The notes under the pieces were generated by a model. It saw only the letters and a list, made by a program, of their open reading frames with translations. It did no database searches and was not told where the DNA came from. Shown piece by piece: positions 156 through 5,874 of a DNA stretch of 47,804 bases (position 1 is its first letter; every line of letters starts with the position of its first letter). The stretch lies in the NCBI GenBank assembly GCA_946497955.1, contig CAMMMH010000010.1, forward strand, positions 1 through 47,804, in the 5' to 3' direction. Source of the stretch: an uncultured Mycoplasmatota bacterium (GTDB lineage: Bacteria > Bacillota_I > Bacilli_A > RF39 > UBA660). A program made the translations under genes and the position numbers.

Positions 156-228
156 AAATTGTCTCCTTCAATGCGACCAAATTAATTATTAAATATAATA
201 CAATTATACCAGAAAGAAGGAGATGTGT

Positions 229-639
229 ATGCAAGAAAAATTAGATAAGTTAAAAGAAAATAGTATTTTAGGAGTAGAGGCTAAAGCTAATTTGAGTATA
301 TGTCCTGGTACAAGTGGAACAATCATAACAAAAGATAAGAAAGTATATGGTTACTCTTTATATAGTTTTATGACTCCATTTTTGGAGAAAAATAATATTC
401 CATTAGAAAATATATATTTAATAAAAGAATTAACAAGTGATGAGTATGATAAGATTCTAAAATTTGTCCAAGAAGAAATAATTAATAAAGAGTATGAATG
501 TATTCCTACACGAGATGGTTATTCAGCTGTTTTTGGAAAACTTAAATCTAGAATATTTTATTATCCAAATTGTTATGCTATTAATACTAAAGAATCTTTA
601 TATAATAAGACAAGAAAACTAATAGAAGAGGTTAAATAG
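229..639 (+). CDS. hypothetical protein (~136 aa)
   Basis: ORF; AGAAGGAG RBS ahead of ATG at 229 (the ATG at 223 is too close to the RBS). Confidence 0.75.
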   Translation: MQEKLDKLKENSILGVEAKANLSICPGTSGTIITKDKKVYGYSLYSFMTPFLEKNNIPLENIYLIKELTSDEYDKILKFVQEEIINKEYECIPTRDGYSAVFGKLKSRIFYYPNCYAINTKESLYNKTRKLIEEVK

Positions 640-650
640 CAACCTCTTCT
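624..650. terminator. convergent terminator hairpin AGAAGAGGTT-aaatagc-AACCTCTTCT
   Basis: 10-bp perfect inverted repeat overlapping both convergent stop codons, followed by TTTTC on +. Confidence 0.7.
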
Positions 651-1129
651 TTTTCATATTCCTTACATTTTTCTTCTAAGAGCCTAAAATTACAACATCT
701 ATCTTTAGTTCTTTTAGAAAGTTTATTAGTATCATATTTTAACATAAAGAAATTAACTTTATCTAATAATTCTCTTTTATGATTATTTAAATAAGTAGTT
801 TGTTCTATAATTAATTTTCTATATTGTTTATCTTTTACTAAAGGAAGTACTTCAGTTAAACAAGATATTGGGGTAGGTATCATGTTATTAATATTAACTA
901 TGCCAAGTTCACCATCTTTGATTTTAAACATATCAAGAGCTCTATTATTCATAGTTAAATGTTTTGGTTTAGGACTTGAAAGTGGAGCGAAATAAGTTTG
1001 ATTATTAAAAGTATAGACAACCCCTACATAAGGTCTAGTTTTGGTTTTATTATAAGCAACTCTATTATCAAATTTTCTTAAATAGTTAATGTAATTAGTA
1101 TTAATATAGTATATTTTTAATGTTTTCAT
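632..1129 (-). CDS. type III toxin-antitoxin system toxin, AbiQ/ToxN-like endoribonuclease (copy 1)
   Basis: 165 aa; motifs YLRKFDNRVAYNK, RPYVGVV, YFAPLSSPKPKH, NINNMIPTP typical of AbiQ/ToxN family; preceded by AGGAGG RBS and a tandem-repeat RNA array. Confidence 0.9.
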   Translation of the reverse strand: MKTLKIYYINTNYINYLRKFDNRVAYNKTKTRPYVGVVYTFNNQTYFAPLSSPKPKHLTMNNRALDMFKIKDGELGIVNINNMIPTPISCLTEVLPLVKDKQYRKLIIEQTTYLNNHKRELLDKVNFFMLKYDTNKLSKRTKDRCCNFRLLEEKCKEYEKEEVAI

Positions 1130-1155
1130 TTGAACCTCCTGATTATAATAATAAA

Positions 1156-1179
1156 GGGCGACTTAATTAAAAATCGCCC
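1156..1179 (-). terminator. terminator between antitoxin RNA array 1 and toxin 1
   Basis: Minus strand GGGCGA-tttttaattaag-TCGCCC followed by T-rich sequence; position matches the attenuating terminator of type III TA operons. Confidence 0.8.
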
Positions 1180-1180
1180 A

Positions 1181-1396
1181 CTTTTTTCAGTCCCTACTAC
1201 GGCAAGGGTATTCCACTTTTTTCAGTCCTTACTACGGCAAAGGTATTCCACTTTTTTCAGTCCCTACTACGGCAAGGGTATTCCACTTTTTTCAGTCCTT
1301 ACTACGGCAAAGGTATTCCACTTTTTTCAGTCCCTACTACGGCAAGGGTATTCCACTTTTTTCAGTCCTTACTACGGCAAAGGTATTCCACTTTTT
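1181..1396 (-). ncRNA. type III TA antitoxin RNA array 1: six 35-bp units (1181,1216,1251,1286,1321,1356) plus a partial seventh
   Basis: Perfect 35-bp periodicity; unit on + CTTTTTTCAGTCC(C/T)TACTACGGCAA(G/A)GGTATTCCA; units alternate A/B; minus-strand RNA has A-rich GAAAAAAG linkers. Confidence 0.88.
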
Positions 1397-1407
1397 GTTA
1401 CAACAAT

Positions 1408-1436
1408 ATAATATCAAATGAATTATATTTTGTAAA
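1408..1436 (-). promoter_or_regulatory. promoter of antitoxin array 1 (TTTACA-N17-TATTAT)
   Basis: -35-like TTTACA (rc of 1431-1436), 17-nt spacer, -10 TATTAT (rc of 1408-1413), directly upstream of array. Confidence 0.65.
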
Positions 1437-1443
1437 GCATTTT

Positions 1444-1941
1444 TTATACAGAAACTTCTTCTTTTTCATATTGCCTACATTTTTCTTCTAATAGATTAAA
1501 GTCACAACATCTGTTTCTTAATCTACTAGATAAGTGTCCTTTGTCATACCTTAATTTAAATTGTTTAACTTTATCTAATAATTCTCTTTTATGATCGTTT
1601 AAATAAGTAGTTTGTTCAATAATTAGTTTTCTATAATGTTTATCTTTTGCTAAAGGAAGTACTTCAGTTAAACAATTAATAGGAGTAGGAATCATGTTAT
1701 TAATATTAACTATACCAAGTTCTCCATCTTTGATTTTAAATATGTCAACTGCTTTTTCATTCATTGTTAAATGTTTTGGTTTAGGACTTGAAAGTGGGGC
1801 AAAGTAAGTTTGATTATTAAAAGTATAGACAACTCCTACATAAGGTCTAGCTTTATTTTTATTGTAGGCAACTCTATTATCGAACTTCCTTAAATAATCA
1901 ATATAATTAGTATCAATATAGTATATTTTTAATGTTTTCAT
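1444..1941 (-). CDS. type III toxin-antitoxin system toxin, AbiQ/ToxN-like endoribonuclease (copy 2)
   Basis: 165 aa, roughly 80% identical by eye to copy 1; same motifs; AGGAGG RBS. Confidence 0.9.
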   Translation of the reverse strand: MKTLKIYYIDTNYIDYLRKFDNRVAYNKNKARPYVGVVYTFNNQTYFAPLSSPKPKHLTMNEKAVDIFKIKDGELGIVNINNMIPTPINCLTEVLPLAKDKHYRKLIIEQTTYLNDHKRELLDKVKQFKLRYDKGHLSSRLRNRCCDFNLLEEKCRQYEKEEVSV

Positions 1942-1969
1942 TTGAACCTCCTGATTATAATAATAAAAA

Positions 1970-1993
1970 GGGCGACTTAATTAAAAATCGCCC
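1970..1993 (-). terminator. terminator between antitoxin RNA array 2 and toxin 2
   Basis: Minus strand GGGCGA-tttttaattaag-TCGCCC followed by TTTTTATT; same element as at 1156-1179. Confidence 0.83.
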
Positions 1994-1994
1994 A

Positions 1995-2109
1995 CTTTTT
2001 TCAGTCCCTACTTTGGCAAGGGTATGCCGACTTTTTTCAGTCCCTACTCTGGCAAGGGTATTCCGACTTTTTTCAGTCCCTACTTTGGCAAGGGTATTCC
2101 CACTTTTTT
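1995..2109 (-). ncRNA. type III TA antitoxin RNA array 2: three 36-bp units (1995,2031,2067) plus partial
   Basis: CTTTTTTCAG at 1995, 2031, 2067 (36-bp period); CCCTAC...GGCAAGGGTA stem conserved with array 1 but loop and linker differ. Confidence 0.85.
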
Positions 2110-2120
2110 GTTACAAGATT

Positions 2121-2149
2121 ATAGTATCAAATAAATTGAACTTTGTAAA
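2121..2149 (-). promoter_or_regulatory. promoter of antitoxin array 2 (TTTACA-N17-TACTAT)
   Basis: Same spacing and position relative to array as the array 1 promoter. Confidence 0.6.
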
Positions 2150-2188
2150 GACTTTTGTTATAATTTATTTAGAAAGTGAGTGGTCAAT

Positions 2189-3016
2189 ATGGCAAAACAT
2201 TATGATTTAGTTGGATCAGTTTATGATAAATATGCTAAAGGTAATAAATATAAAGAAGAAGAGATAATTAAAATACCTGGAGTTGCCTTGAAATCTTTAG
2301 AAGATATAGATAAATTTACAGCAGGACTTATTGGCCCTGAGGAATTAAAGAGCAAAATAGATAAAAAATATCAAAATAAATCTACTTTTGCTATAAGAGT
2401 TACCACAGATAATGAAAAATTTTATTATAAGAGCATTATTTATAATAATCCTAATCTAGTTAAAATAGCTAGTTCCTTAAAACAAAACACAGTATATAGA
2501 GCAAGTGGCCCTAGAACTATTAAAATGTATCTTGGTACTGATGATTTATTTATGGATGCCTGGGGGGAGGTTCTAAATAAAATAATAAATAGTAAAGTAA
2601 ATGATGAAGATAGGGAATGGTTATATAGCGTTTTTGGAGAAAAAAGTAGGTATACTACTTCTATTAATAGATATATAAAAGGTGATCCTTATGATAGTGA
2701 AACTGATAAAACATTGTTAGATTTAGAACAAGATTTTAGAGAGTATGAAGTATTTCGTAAATATCTTACTAATAAAGACAAAGCTAAAAATAAAACAACA
2801 ATATCTAATGTAAAAGTTACATCATCTAATATTCCTCTTAAAACTAGTTTAGATGTAATAGAAGAAAAACTAGGCAGTGATATTAGTTATGTGTCTTTAG
2901 ATGATGAAGATGATGACTATGAACCAGATGATTTTGCCTTTCTTTCTCCTGAAGAAAGAGAAAAAGCTTATGGTGAAGGTAATGAAGATATAGAAGAACA
3001 TAGGAGAAGACGTTAA
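2189..3016 (+). CDS. hypothetical protein with acidic C-terminal tail, translationally coupled to Xer recombinase
   Basis: ORF; stop TAA overlaps start of next gene (TAATG at 3014-3018); tail DDEDDDYEPDDF...EEHRRRR. Confidence 0.8.
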   Translation: MAKHYDLVGSVYDKYAKGNKYKEEEIIKIPGVALKSLEDIDKFTAGLIGPEELKSKIDKKYQNKSTFAIRVTTDNEKFYYKSIIYNNPNLVKIASSLKQNTVYRASGPRTIKMYLGTDDLFMDAWGEVLNKIINSKVNDEDREWLYSVFGEKSRYTTSINRYIKGDPYDSETDKTLLDLEQDFREYEVFRKYLTNKDKAKNKTTISNVKVTSSNIPLKTSLDVIEEKLGSDISYVSLDDEDDDYEPDDFAFLSPEEREKAYGEGNEDIEEHRRRR

Positions 3017-3903
3017 TGTTAGATGAATATTTAGAATATCTAGAATATGAAAGACATTATTCTAAATATACTATAGATAACTATGAAAGAGATATAGAAG
3101 AGTTTTTAGATTATTTAGATAAAGAGGGACTTAATTATTTAAAACTAGAATATAGTGATATAAGACTTTATTTAATGTATCTAAAAGATGAAAAACATGA
3201 GAAGTCTACTTCTATTAGTAGAAAACTTAGTGCTCTTAGAAGTTATTATAAATATCTTTGTAGTAATAATAAAGTAAAGACTAATTTATTTAACTTAATA
3301 TCATCTCCTAAGAAAGAACAGAAATTACCTAGATATTTTGAATATAACGAGTTAGAAGAATTGTTTAGTGTGCCAGACTTAAAGACTCCTTTAGGACAAA
3401 GAGATAGATTAGTACTAGAGATTATGTATGCGACAGGGATAAGGGTAGGAGAGCTAGTTAAGATTAGATTAAAAGACATTAATAGAAGTGAAAGAACTAT
3501 TCTTATTCATGGTAAAGGTAGTAAGGAGAGAATTGTTAATTATGGGGAGTATGCTAGTGATATATTAGATTTATATTTAAATAATGGTTATAAAGAATTG
3601 AATAAATTTAATAGTGATTACCTAGTTCTTAATAATCAAGGAAGAGTGATAACAGAACGGGGGATTAGATACATACTCACTAATTTAATTAAGAAAACAT
3701 CTTTACATAAAAATATATCTCCTCATATGTTAAGACATTCTTTTGCAACCCATCTTTTAAATGAAGGGTGTGATATTTTATCAGTAAAAGAATTATTAGG
3801 ACATGAGAGTATTTCCTCTACTCAAATATATACTCATATTACTAATGATAGATTAAAAGAAGTTTATTTACATAGTTTTCCAAGAAGTAATGTCAAAAAG
3901 TAA
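3016..3903 (+). CDS. tyrosine recombinase, XerC/XerD family
   Basis: 295 aa; ATGIRVGEL (R), HGKGSKERI (K), HMLRHSFATHLL (HxxR), LLGHESISSTQIYTHI (H, Y). Confidence 0.93.
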   Translation: MLDEYLEYLEYERHYSKYTIDNYERDIEEFLDYLDKEGLNYLKLEYSDIRLYLMYLKDEKHEKSTSISRKLSALRSYYKYLCSNNKVKTNLFNLISSPKKEQKLPRYFEYNELEELFSVPDLKTPLGQRDRLVLEIMYATGIRVGELVKIRLKDINRSERTILIHGKGSKERIVNYGEYASDILDLYLNNGYKELNKFNSDYLVLNNQGRVITERGIRYILTNLIKKTSLHKNISPHMLRHSFATHLLNEGCDILSVKELLGHESISSTQIYTHITNDRLKEVYLHSFPRSNVKK

Positions 3904-4038: not shown

Positions 4039-5874
4039 ATGGAAAAAGATAATAAGAAGATAATAACAATAGTAATGAGCATAATAATTATATTAGTATT
4101 AGTATTAGCGATAAGTTATGCTTACTTTTCTACAGAGCTTAATGGAACAGACCAAATGGTAAAAGTAGGAACATTAGATTTAGTACTAGATGAGACAAGT
4201 GAAGGGATAACTTTAGATAATGCAGTAGGTATAAGTGATAGTGAAGGTTTATCTTTAGATGGTTCTACTTTTGAACTTAGAAATAATGGTAATAAGGCCA
4301 TAGATTATACAATATATTTAGATGATAATACTATAGGAGATAATGATACAAGAATAGATGATAAGTACTTAAAGTATAATCTAAATAAGAATGGTGCAAA
4401 TAGTGGAGCGACTTTACTAACTAGAATAGGTGCTAATCCTAATAGAATATTAGATAGTGGAACCATAGAAGGAGATACTACTAATAAATATAGTTTAAAA
4501 CTTTGGATAACAGATGAAGTAGATGGAAATTATTCAGGTCAAGTATTTAGTGGTAAGTTAAGAGTAGAAGTTAGTCAAGAAAGAGAGAAAGAAGTTGCAA
4601 CTGTATTACTTAATAATATACCAGATGATAATCTTTATGATGATGGAACAGATACCTTTATAACAGGAACTGACCCTAATAACTATATTTGGTATTCAGG
4701 AAAGTTATGGAGAGCTGTATCTGTTAATAATGAAGAAAAAACTGTTAAATTAGTGACTCAGTGGAATATAAGTACTATTTCTTATGATAATGATAGCAGT
4801 GACTTTGAAAAAAGTTACATGCAAGAATGGTTAAATGATACAACAGTAGATGGCTTTTTAGGTAATTTAAGAGATTATGAAAACTTTATTGTAACCAATG
4901 CTGAGTGGAATGCAAGTATGATGACTGATAATAGTAAGCCACCAAGTGAAATCGAAGGAGGAACAATAATAACAGATGCTGTTGGACTTTTAAATAGATA
5001 TGAATATGCAAATAGTTATCGCGGAACGACTGATAAGAATGGTTATTTGAATAATGCACTATATTCATGGCTATTAACACCATATGATTACTCTAGTATT
5101 AATTCTATTTCAGCTTCTGGTTCTATAGTTCACCCACAAAAATTAGGTATTAATGGTATACGCCCATCTATAAATTTAATATCTAATGTAAAAATAGTAA
5201 GTGGCAAGGGTACAGCAGATAATCCTTATCGTTTAAAAGGAGATAAGGATACTAGCTTAAAAGGAACGCATCTAAATACAAGATATAGTGGGGAATACAT
5301 AACTTTTGGAACAGGAGATAATAATTTATATAGAATAGTAAGTCACGAGACTGAAGGATTAACAAAAATAACAAGTGCAGAGCCTTTAAAAAATGAAGGA
5401 TCTTTTATTACAACGGCTTTTGGTAATATATTATTTTCAAGTACAAATACAATTGGATTATTTTTAAACGGAGAATATCTAATAAATTATTTAGGGGAAG
5501 AATATAGTAATATGATAGAAGATAATACAACATGGTATTTAGGATTTGGAGGTCAAGGTACAAATTATAAACTAGCCAAATATACAGATAAAAGTATGTC
5601 AGGTTATGCTACAACAACAACTGCTAAAGTAGGTTTGCTTAGAATGGGAGAATTAATGTCAGGACAATTTGGTAGATATGAAAAAAATAGTAATTACTGG
5701 TTATTAACAACGTATAATACGTCTTACGTTCTTTCTGTATTATATGCAGGAGATATGAATACCTTTATGATGTATAGTTCTGCAATTAAACCATCTCTAA
5801 ATCTTAAATCTAATGTTGTAATAACTTCTGGAGATGGGACTTTACAAAATCCATTTGAAATTGAATTAGAATAA
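4039..5874 (+). CDS. exported/surface protein with TasA/CalY-like (SipW-type) N-terminus and two tandem copies of a C-terminal domain
   Basis: N-term hydrophobic helix then ISYAYFSTELNGTDQMVKVGTLDLVLDET; two domain copies each ending WLLTxY...(R/K)PS(I/L)NL.SNV.I.SG.GT..NP(Y/F). Confidence 0.7.
   Translation: MEKDNKKIITIVMSIIIILVLVLAISYAYFSTELNGTDQMVKVGTLDLVLDETSEGITLDNAVGISDSEGLSLDGSTFELRNNGNKAIDYTIYLDDNTIGDNDTRIDDKYLKYNLNKNGANSGATLLTRIGANPNRILDSGTIEGDTTNKYSLKLWITDEVDGNYSGQVFSGKLRVEVSQEREKEVATVLLNNIPDDNLYDDGTDTFITGTDPNNYIWYSGKLWRAVSVNNEEKTVKLVTQWNISTISYDNDSSDFEKSYMQEWLNDTTVDGFLGNLRDYENFIVTNAEWNASMMTDNSKPPSEIEGGTIITDAVGLLNRYEYANSYRGTTDKNGYLNNALYSWLLTPYDYSSINSISASGSIVHPQKLGINGIRPSINLISNVKIVSGKGTADNPYRLKGDKDTSLKGTHLNTRYSGEYITFGTGDNNLYRIVSHETEGLTKITSAEPLKNEGSFITTAFGNILFSSTNTIGLFLNGEYLINYLGEEYSNMIEDNTTWYLGFGGQGTNYKLAKYTDKSMSGYATTTTAKVGLLRMGELMSGQFGRYEKNSNYWLLTTYNTSYVLSVLYAGDMNTFMMYSSAIKPSLNLKSNVVITSGDGTLQNPFEIELE

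What the first reader, a model, noticed from the sequence alone, without database searches (positions are those of the whole stretch)
632..2155. Two complete type III (RNA-antitoxin) toxin-antitoxin operons in tandem
Minus-strand order in both units is promoter (TTTACA-N17-TAnTAT), tandem-repeat RNA array, GGGCGA/TCGCCC terminator, AGGAGG RBS, and a 165-aa AbiQ/ToxN-like ORF. The leader-terminator-RBS segments are nearly identical between units, so the operon was duplicated. Type III systems are known phage-defence/abortive-infection modules (AbiQ, ToxIN). A back-to-back pair in one locus, each with its own array, is unusual and allows study of cross-talk versus insulation.
Basis: partly seen in the sequence, partly recalled or inferred. 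Interest (0 to 1): 0.78.

Follow-up and report, generated by a model that had tools for sequence, protein, structure and literature searches.

The report
Two side-by-side RNA-antitoxin toxin operons
A gut bacterium carries two complete, back-to-back copies of a known self-poisoning (probably anti-phage) module, each with its own RNA antidote; the copies have drifted apart in matching parts of poison and antidote, which makes the pair a useful natural test of how such modules stay separate.

Summary
Confirmed. Window 632-2155 (minus strand) holds two complete ToxIN/AbiQ-type (type III) toxin-antitoxin units in tandem: promoter, ToxI-like repeat array (unit B 3 x 36 nt, unit A 6 x 35 nt), GGGCGA/TCGCCC terminator, AGGAGG, 165-aa ToxN. 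Both toxins hit Pfam ToxN (1.8e-41, 6e-40) and PADLOC AbiQ; the predicted fold matches solved ToxN/AbiQ (TM about 0.8). All nine repeats match Rfam ToxI full length on the right strand, though below its gathering score. The genome is a Candidatus Onthousia (Bacilli) MAG with two further ToxN loci. The locus xerC-gene-[one or two ToxIN units]-gene is fixed in the genus; four other genomes carry pairs, and unrelated pairs occur elsewhere in the class. The duplication predates the species: A matches A elsewhere (up to 97%) better than its neighbour B (82%). A and B are indistinguishable in the toxin N-terminus but differ at a patch (codons 116-143) on the antitoxin-contacting kinked helix, and in the repeats' pseudoknot. 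The two recombinants joining one type's array to the other's patch both have destroyed toxins. I infer largely insulated specificities on coupled transcripts (toxin B's mRNA has no terminator before array A). Each unit is ordinary; the pair is the interest.

The parts
2121..2149 (-). Promoter of unit B (TTTACA-N17-TACTAT, extended -10 TG); overlaps the divergent + strand promoter-like site at 2136-2164 of the flanking gene
   Evidence: consensus scan; more sites than shuffles overall, but not proof
1996..2103 (-). Antitoxin array B: three 36-nt ToxI-like repeats (GTSGGVATACCCTTGCCARAGTAGGGACTGAAAAAA)
   Evidence: Rfam RF02519 ToxI full-length on - strand, 19.4-20.7 bits, below gathering score
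1970..1993 (-). Terminator hairpin between array B and toxin B
1947..1952 (-). AGGAGG ribosome-binding site of toxin B
1444..1941 (-). Toxin B, 165 aa, ToxN/AbiQ family
   Evidence: Pfam PF13958 1.8e-41; PADLOC AbiQ 4.7e-39; 4ato 6.9e-25
1408..1436 (-). Promoter of unit A (TTTACA-N17-TATTAT, extended -10 TG), starting 7 nt after the stop codon of toxin B
1182..1391 (-). Antitoxin array A: six 35-nt ToxI-like repeats in which CCC..GGG and CCT..AGG variants alternate (three exact 70-nt copies)
   Evidence: Rfam RF02519 ToxI full-length on - strand, 27.8-32.6 bits, E 0.014-0.0011, below gathering score
1156..1179 (-). Terminator hairpin between array A and toxin A (also the first terminator met by a transcript reading out of toxin B)
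1135..1140 (-). AGGAGG ribosome-binding site of toxin A
632..1129 (-). Toxin A, 165 aa, ToxN/AbiQ family
   Evidence: Pfam PF13958 6e-40; PADLOC AbiQ 1.5e-37; AlphaFold model pLDDT 91.3, TM about 0.8 to 7d8o/2xd0/4ato/4glk
624..650 (.). Bidirectional terminator shared by toxin A and the convergent flanking gene
223..639 (+). Conserved flank of the locus (138-aa protein of unknown function), convergent with toxin A
   Evidence: no significant Pfam/PHROGs hit
2180..3016 (+). Conserved but fast-diverging flank (278-aa protein of unknown function), divergent from unit B
   Evidence: no significant Pfam/PHROGs hit
3016..3903 (+). XerC/D-type tyrosine recombinase, syntenic anchor of the locus (88-99% identical across the genus)

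Best explanation
The locus is a tandem pair of ToxIN-family (AbiQ-like) type III toxin-antitoxin operons at a fixed chromosomal site in Candidatus Onthousia. Shown: two ToxN-fold toxins, each preceded by promoter, ToxI-like repeat array, terminator and RBS; the A and B types are old paralogues; their arrays and a C-terminal toxin patch diverge together while the leader and toxin N-terminus do not. Inferred: each promoter makes mostly array RNA, with some read-through of the hairpin to translate ToxN; ToxN cuts its array in the A-rich tails into pseudoknots of 35 nt (A) or 36 nt (B) that lock it into an inactive RNA-protein ring; when transcription stops, for example after phage takeover, the short-lived RNA decays and freed ToxN cleaves RNA, halting the infected cell. 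Inferred with less certainty (about 0.6): A and B are largely insulated in specificity, through the second half of the kinked helix against the repeat's first pseudoknot stem, but coupled in transcription, because toxin B's mRNA has no terminator before array A and must carry it. The confidence given is for the family and the basic mechanism.
For: Toxins: Pfam ToxN 6e-40 and 1.8e-41, AbiQ, PDB ToxN 5.6e-22 and 6.9e-25, AlphaFold pLDDT 91.3 and TM 0.78-0.84 to the four ToxN/AbiQ entries; catalytic SSPK and Arg kept (roles from PMC8860590). Arrays: Rfam ToxI full-length on all nine repeats, correct strand; pseudoknot register kept across diverse repeats, second stem 97.7% paired with both-side changes in 3 of 4 pairs; alternating A repeats carry the C-G to U-A change on both sides together. 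Promoters and terminators. Pair is old and syntenic. Co-divergence: 19 of 26 fixed A/B nucleotide differences lie in codons 116-143, none in codons 1-61; all 9 A-patch toxins sit behind CCG arrays (35-nt repeats, two with a 36-nt first repeat), all 4 B-patch toxins behind 36-nt CCA arrays. Both mismatched recombinants have broken toxins. No cross-neutralisation between relatives tested so far (PMC5086642, PMC4627078).
Against: No transcription, processing or toxicity data exist. Rfam scores are below the gathering cut-off (32.6 and 20.7 against 50). Cross-neutralisation failures in the literature concern toxins only 35-44% identical (CptIN) or from different genera (ToxIN), whereas A and B are 82% identical and their repeats share most letters, so cross-talk is quite possible. 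Array and patch are physically linked, so part of their association is simple descent. The mismatch argument rests on two cases, defined after seeing the data (Fisher 0.026), and broken toxins also occur in matched units (G010 A, G012). All genomes are metagenome assemblies, in which near-identical repeats can be collapsed or chimaeric.
Confidence: 0.9

Rival explanations
1. Redundant pair with full cross-talk: either array neutralises either toxin, and the second unit mainly raises dosage or repeat number (nine repeats against two toxins).
For: 82% identical toxins and shared core CCCTTGCC..AGTAGGGA; leader, terminator and toxin N-terminus are indistinguishable between types; toxin B's transcript would supply array A.
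Against: Differences are concentrated in the antitoxin-contacting helix and in the repeat's first stem and length, kept apart across species; both mismatched recombinants carry dead toxins.
Confidence: 0.3
2. One unit is decaying: the pair is a transient by-product of array-mediated unequal recombination, with no selected function for having two.
For: Unit number varies at the same site; toxin A of G010 is destroyed near its start codon while array A remains; mosaic arrays in G004 and G021 look like deletion products; orphan and composite arrays at the C18 site.
Against: Both window ORFs are intact with all signals; the B-A pair is kept in three genomes with 95-98% identical toxins.
Confidence: 0.3
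3. Anti-addiction: array A, driven by its own promoter and by B read-through, serves mainly as extra antitoxin shielding the cell from toxin B or from incoming ToxIN elements.
For: Six repeats against three; the array is kept where toxin A is dead (G010); an orphan array without toxin exists at G000:C18 (L067 2185-2335).
Against: Toxin A in the window is intact and needs neutralising itself; repeat types differ between A and B.
Confidence: 0.15
4. Not a type III system: the repeats are unrelated to the ORFs (e.g. satellite or CRISPR-like repeats beside MazF-like genes).
For: Rfam ToxI matches are below the gathering score.
Against: Profile, sequence and fold matches to ToxN/AbiQ; repeats head-to-tail without spacers; the array-terminator-toxin order is kept at the related loci read.
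Confidence: 0.01

Closest known systems
AbiQ/antiQ (Lactococcus lactis), PDB 4glk
   Same: ToxN-family endoribonuclease fold (TM 0.84), RNA antitoxin repeat array upstream, phage-defence family
   Different: 29% identity in the structural alignment; known as a single unit with 2.8 repeats (PMC5772629) against a chromosomal tandem pair with 6 and 3 repeats
ToxIN of Bacillus thuringiensis, PDB 4ato
   Same: Best sequence match among solved structures (6.9e-25); RNA pseudoknot antitoxin
   Different: Single unit; motif TSRN against SSPK here; distinct repeats
ToxIN of Pectobacterium atrosepticum, PDB 2xd0, and of E. coli, PDB 7d8o
   Same: Fold, operon order, 36-nt repeat length of unit B, kinked helix contacting the pseudoknot (PMC8860590)
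   Different: 24-25% identity in the structural alignment; single units; Thr52 replaced by Ser in both window toxins
Rfam RF02519 ToxI
   Same: All nine repeats align over the full 34-nt model with the same stem
   Different: Scores 19-33 bits, below the 50-bit gathering score; unit B repeats have one extra nucleotide and lack the CCGUAG loop of the consensus
Other tandem type III loci found here: G413 (same family; CptIN then two ToxIN) and G382 (another family)
   Same: Two ToxN genes head-to-tail; in G413 each has its own array
   Different: G413 toxins are 42% and 50% identical to the window's toxin A; apparently independent origins; G413 adds a CptN-type unit upstream (4rmo 7.2e-20)

Membership tests
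Type III TA, ToxIN (AbiQ) family | Toxin homologous to ToxN/AbiQ | tested here: met
   PF13958 6e-40 and 1.8e-41, cut-off 25 bits exceeded; AbiQ 1.5e-37 and 4.7e-39
Type III TA, ToxIN (AbiQ) family | ToxN fold with kinked helix | tested here: met
   AlphaFold pLDDT 91.3; helices 101-116 and 118-133 with a break at 117; TM 0.78-0.84 to 7d8o, 2xd0, 4ato, 4glk
Type III TA, ToxIN (AbiQ) family | Catalytic residues (Lys/Arg33, Thr52, Ser53, Lys55 in ToxN) | tested here: met
   R32, S51, S52, K54 in both toxins; Thr52 is a conservative Ser; Arg at position 33 also occurs in E. coli clusters 4-5 (PMC8860590)
Type III TA, ToxIN (AbiQ) family | Head-to-tail array of about 34-37-nt repeats immediately upstream of the toxin | tested here: met
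   6 x 35 nt and 3 x 36 nt
Type III TA, ToxIN (AbiQ) family | Repeats form an H-type pseudoknot (ToxI) | tested here: inconclusive
   Same register in diverse repeats; second stem 97.7% paired with both-side changes in 3 of 4 pairs; Rfam ToxI full-length on all nine repeats but below gathering score; single-repeat pseudoknot scores are not exceptional (12-61 of 200 shuffles as good)
Type III TA, ToxIN (AbiQ) family | Rho-independent terminator between array and toxin; promoter upstream of the array | tested here: met
   Hairpins 1993-1970 and 1179-1156; promoters 2149-2121 and 1436-1408
Type III TA, ToxIN (AbiQ) family | Array RNA is cut by and neutralises the toxin | not testable with these tools
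   Needs expression and kill/rescue assays
Type III TA, ToxIN (AbiQ) family | Abortive infection of phage | not testable with these tools
   Needs phage challenge in a laboratory host
Type III TA, CptIN family | Toxin closest to CptN, repeats of about 45 nt | tested here: not met
   Fold match to CptN 4rmo only TM 0.42; repeats 35/36 nt
CRISPR-like array | Repeats separated by unique spacers | tested here: not met
   Repeats are contiguous with no spacers

The most novel reading that the evidence does not exclude
A naturally insulated pair of paralogous type III systems, transcriptionally nested: toxin B's mRNA carries array A as its 3' end, and specificity is split by a short, swappable code (second half of the toxin's kinked helix against the repeat's first pseudoknot stem and 5' length), with natural recombinants that break the code surviving only with dead toxins.
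Probability: 0.4. Interest if true: 0.65.

Novelty: new member of a known kind. Interest (0 to 1): 0.45.

Why it matters
Cognate specificity of type III systems has been tested on distant relatives (e.g. CptN toxins 35-44% identical). Here nature supplies two neighbours in one cell that are 82% identical and differ consistently at a handful of positions, together with orthologues, mosaics and dead recombinants across a genus. That makes it directly testable how new toxin/RNA-antitoxin specificities arise after duplication, and how repeat arrays drive gain, loss and shuffling of units.

Tried and rejected
Rfam at gathering threshold gave nothing; the permissive search found ToxI. IMG/VR gave no toxin relatives, and the single core matches there are about what chance gives in so large a collection (my estimate). 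Plasmid and phage records hold only distant relatives, under 60% identity; two extra places among the plasmid records were not looked at. Strict within-genome gene conversion was considered and not supported: same-genome A/B distances in the N-terminus are no lower than between genomes; exchange between types in a shared pool fits better. Dead toxins as pure evidence of mismatch was weakened: G012 and G010 A are broken in matched units. RNAfold z-scores of the leaders (-1.8) are weak and were not relied on. The 2012 survey of type III systems is not in the library, so whether tandem pairs were noted there is unknown to me.

Full report
WHAT IS THERE. On the minus strand, 2155 to 632, two units follow each other: promoter (TTTACA-N17-TACTAT, 2149-2121), three 36-nt repeats (2103-1996), terminator hairpin (1993-1970), AGGAGG, 165-aa ORF (1941-1444); then promoter (TTTACA-N17-TATTAT, 1436-1408), six 35-nt repeats (1391-1182), the same hairpin (1179-1156), AGGAGG, 165-aa ORF (1129-632). 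I call the first B and the second A. The stretch from last repeat to start codon is the same in both but for the length of a T-run. The repeat core is found 12 times in the assembly, every time in a ToxN-associated array, and the reversed control pattern never.

FAMILY. Toxins A and B match Pfam ToxN_toxin at 6e-40 and 1.8e-41 and PADLOC AbiQ. Solved relatives by sequence are ToxN of B. thuringiensis (4ato), P. atrosepticum (2xd0), E. coli (7d8o) and AbiQ (4glk). An AlphaFold model of toxin A (pLDDT 91.3) matches the same four structures at TM 0.78-0.84 and nothing else at E below 0.001. The catalytic set is kept as R32, S51, S52, K54, with Ser for Thr52 (roles from PMC8860590). All nine repeats match Rfam ToxI over the whole 34-nt model on the minus strand, but at 19-33 bits against a gathering score of 50. 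So the locus is two ToxIN-family type III systems by protein, order, array and RNA; only the RNA threshold is missed.

THE RNA. An H-type pseudoknot can be drawn in the same register in repeats from several ToxN subfamilies. The single-repeat scores are not exceptional against shuffles, so the evidence is comparative. On an alignment of 33 distinct repeats the second stem is 97.7% paired, with both-side changes in 3 of 4 pairs; 0 of 500 shuffles reach the observed covariation score, though sliding the structure by one column gives a similar covariation score with far fewer paired cells. Inside array A two variants alternate, CCC..GGG and CCU..AGG: the C-G to U-A change is present on both sides or on neither in all six repeats.

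CONTEXT. The organism is a Candidatus Onthousia-type Bacilli MAG. Its genome has two further ToxN loci, C18 and C24. In the genus 23 of 35 genomes carry ToxN. The window locus is syntenic: xerC, a fast-changing 278-aa gene, one or two ToxIN units, a 138-aa gene. Two units with both flanks: the window, G001 (L052), G010 (L054), G034 (L053); G024 (L055) is cut by the contig end inside the upstream unit. One unit, with at least part of both flanks: G004, G012, G021, G028, G029. In a class-wide sample 40 of 395 genomes have ToxN, including the window's own, and two more tandem pairs appear, G413 and G382. Tandem pairs are thus uncommon but recurrent.

HISTORY. Toxin A is 97% identical to A of G001 but 82% to its neighbour B; B is 94-96% identical to B of G001 and G010, and the tree groups A with A. 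The duplication predates these species. Divergence is not even: over the first 150 nt the A-A, B-B and A-B distances are about the same, while over nt 400-450 they are 0.05, 0.05 and 0.42. Of 26 fixed A/B nucleotide differences 19 lie in codons 116-143 and none in codons 1-61. That patch is the second half of the kinked helix (118-133) and what follows; in E. coli ToxN the kinked helix contacts the edges of the pseudoknots of two adjacent repeats (PMC8860590). The repeats differ too: A 35 nt, GYGG with CCGY; B 36 nt, GTSGG with CCA. All nine A-patch toxins sit behind CCG arrays and all four B-patch toxins behind CCA arrays (Fisher 0.0014, not corrected for relatedness). This linkage persists although the segment between them, the leader and N-terminus, is shared by both types.

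RECOMBINANTS. G004 and G021 have a first 36-nt repeat followed by 35-nt repeats and an intact A toxin, as expected of deletions by recombination within arrays. G022 joins a B-type array to an A-type patch, and G030 joins a G034-type array and N-terminus to an A-type patch. Both toxins are destroyed: by a nonsense codon at 130 and a further disruption in G022, by an inserted element after codon 129 in G030. Matched units are broken in 2 of 20 (G010 A, G012), mismatched in 2 of 2 (Fisher 0.026, defined after the fact). This is suggestive of insulation, not proof.

HOW IT PROBABLY WORKS. From the established biology of the family (PMC5772629; PMC5086642): the hairpin makes array RNA exceed toxin mRNA; ToxN cuts the array and is locked in a ring with three pseudoknots; loss of transcription may free it. 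I infer the same for each unit. Specific to the pair, the stop of toxin B lies 7 nt before promoter A and no terminator is found between them, so toxin B mRNA must contain array A. Making toxin B therefore also makes array A, while array B depends on its own promoter alone. Whether array A can restrain toxin B decides between insulation (favoured) and cross-talk.

LIMITS. No expression data. All genomes are metagenome assemblies; the 70-nt exact repeat could be collapsed, so six repeats may be a minimum. I could not read the 2012 family survey, so prior description of tandem pairs cannot be excluded.

VERDICT. Real, correctly identified, each unit ordinary. The pair is a good natural system for studying how toxin/RNA-antitoxin specificity splits after duplication.

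Noticed in passing
L067 2185-2335 (window's own genome, G000:C18): A three-repeat antitoxin-like array of a different type (GGTTCACAC..TCC..) with promoter-like sequence and terminator but no toxin after it, directly upstream of the intact C18 ToxIN unit: an orphan antitoxin array. Its likely toxin subfamily (as in L009) is absent from the assembly.
   Followed up: partly
L009 2013-2440 (G021:C18): At the same chromosomal site, one promoter drives a composite array: two repeats of the C18 type followed by three of the other type, then terminator and the other type's toxin. Looks like a recombination product and a possible dual-specificity antitoxin.
   Followed up: partly
L072 1279-3477 (G413:C14): Three type III systems in a row: a CptN-like toxin (4rmo, 7.2e-20) behind a 51-nt repeat array, then two ToxIN units with 36- and 35-nt arrays.
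   Followed up: partly
L066 2300-2858 and L090 3300-3408 (G030): A hybrid ToxN interrupted after codon 129 by an element whose gene start resembles an IS605-type TnpB (my reading, not searched); the A-type C-terminal toxin fragment lies on another contig beside the conserved 138-aa gene.
   Followed up: partly
L054 3354-3834 (G010:C5): Toxin A destroyed by a deletion of about 14 nt near the start codon while its two-repeat array and terminator remain.
   Followed up: yes
window 2180-3016: The divergent 278-aa gene beside the ToxIN pair varies from 37 to 80% identity across the genus while neighbouring xerC stays at 88-99%: a fast-diverging gene of unknown function with a promoter overlapping that of unit B.
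   Followed up: no
window 4039-5874: 611-aa protein with an N-terminal hydrophobic segment; diverged copies (22-71% identity over parts) appear near the same locus in several genomes.
   Followed up: no
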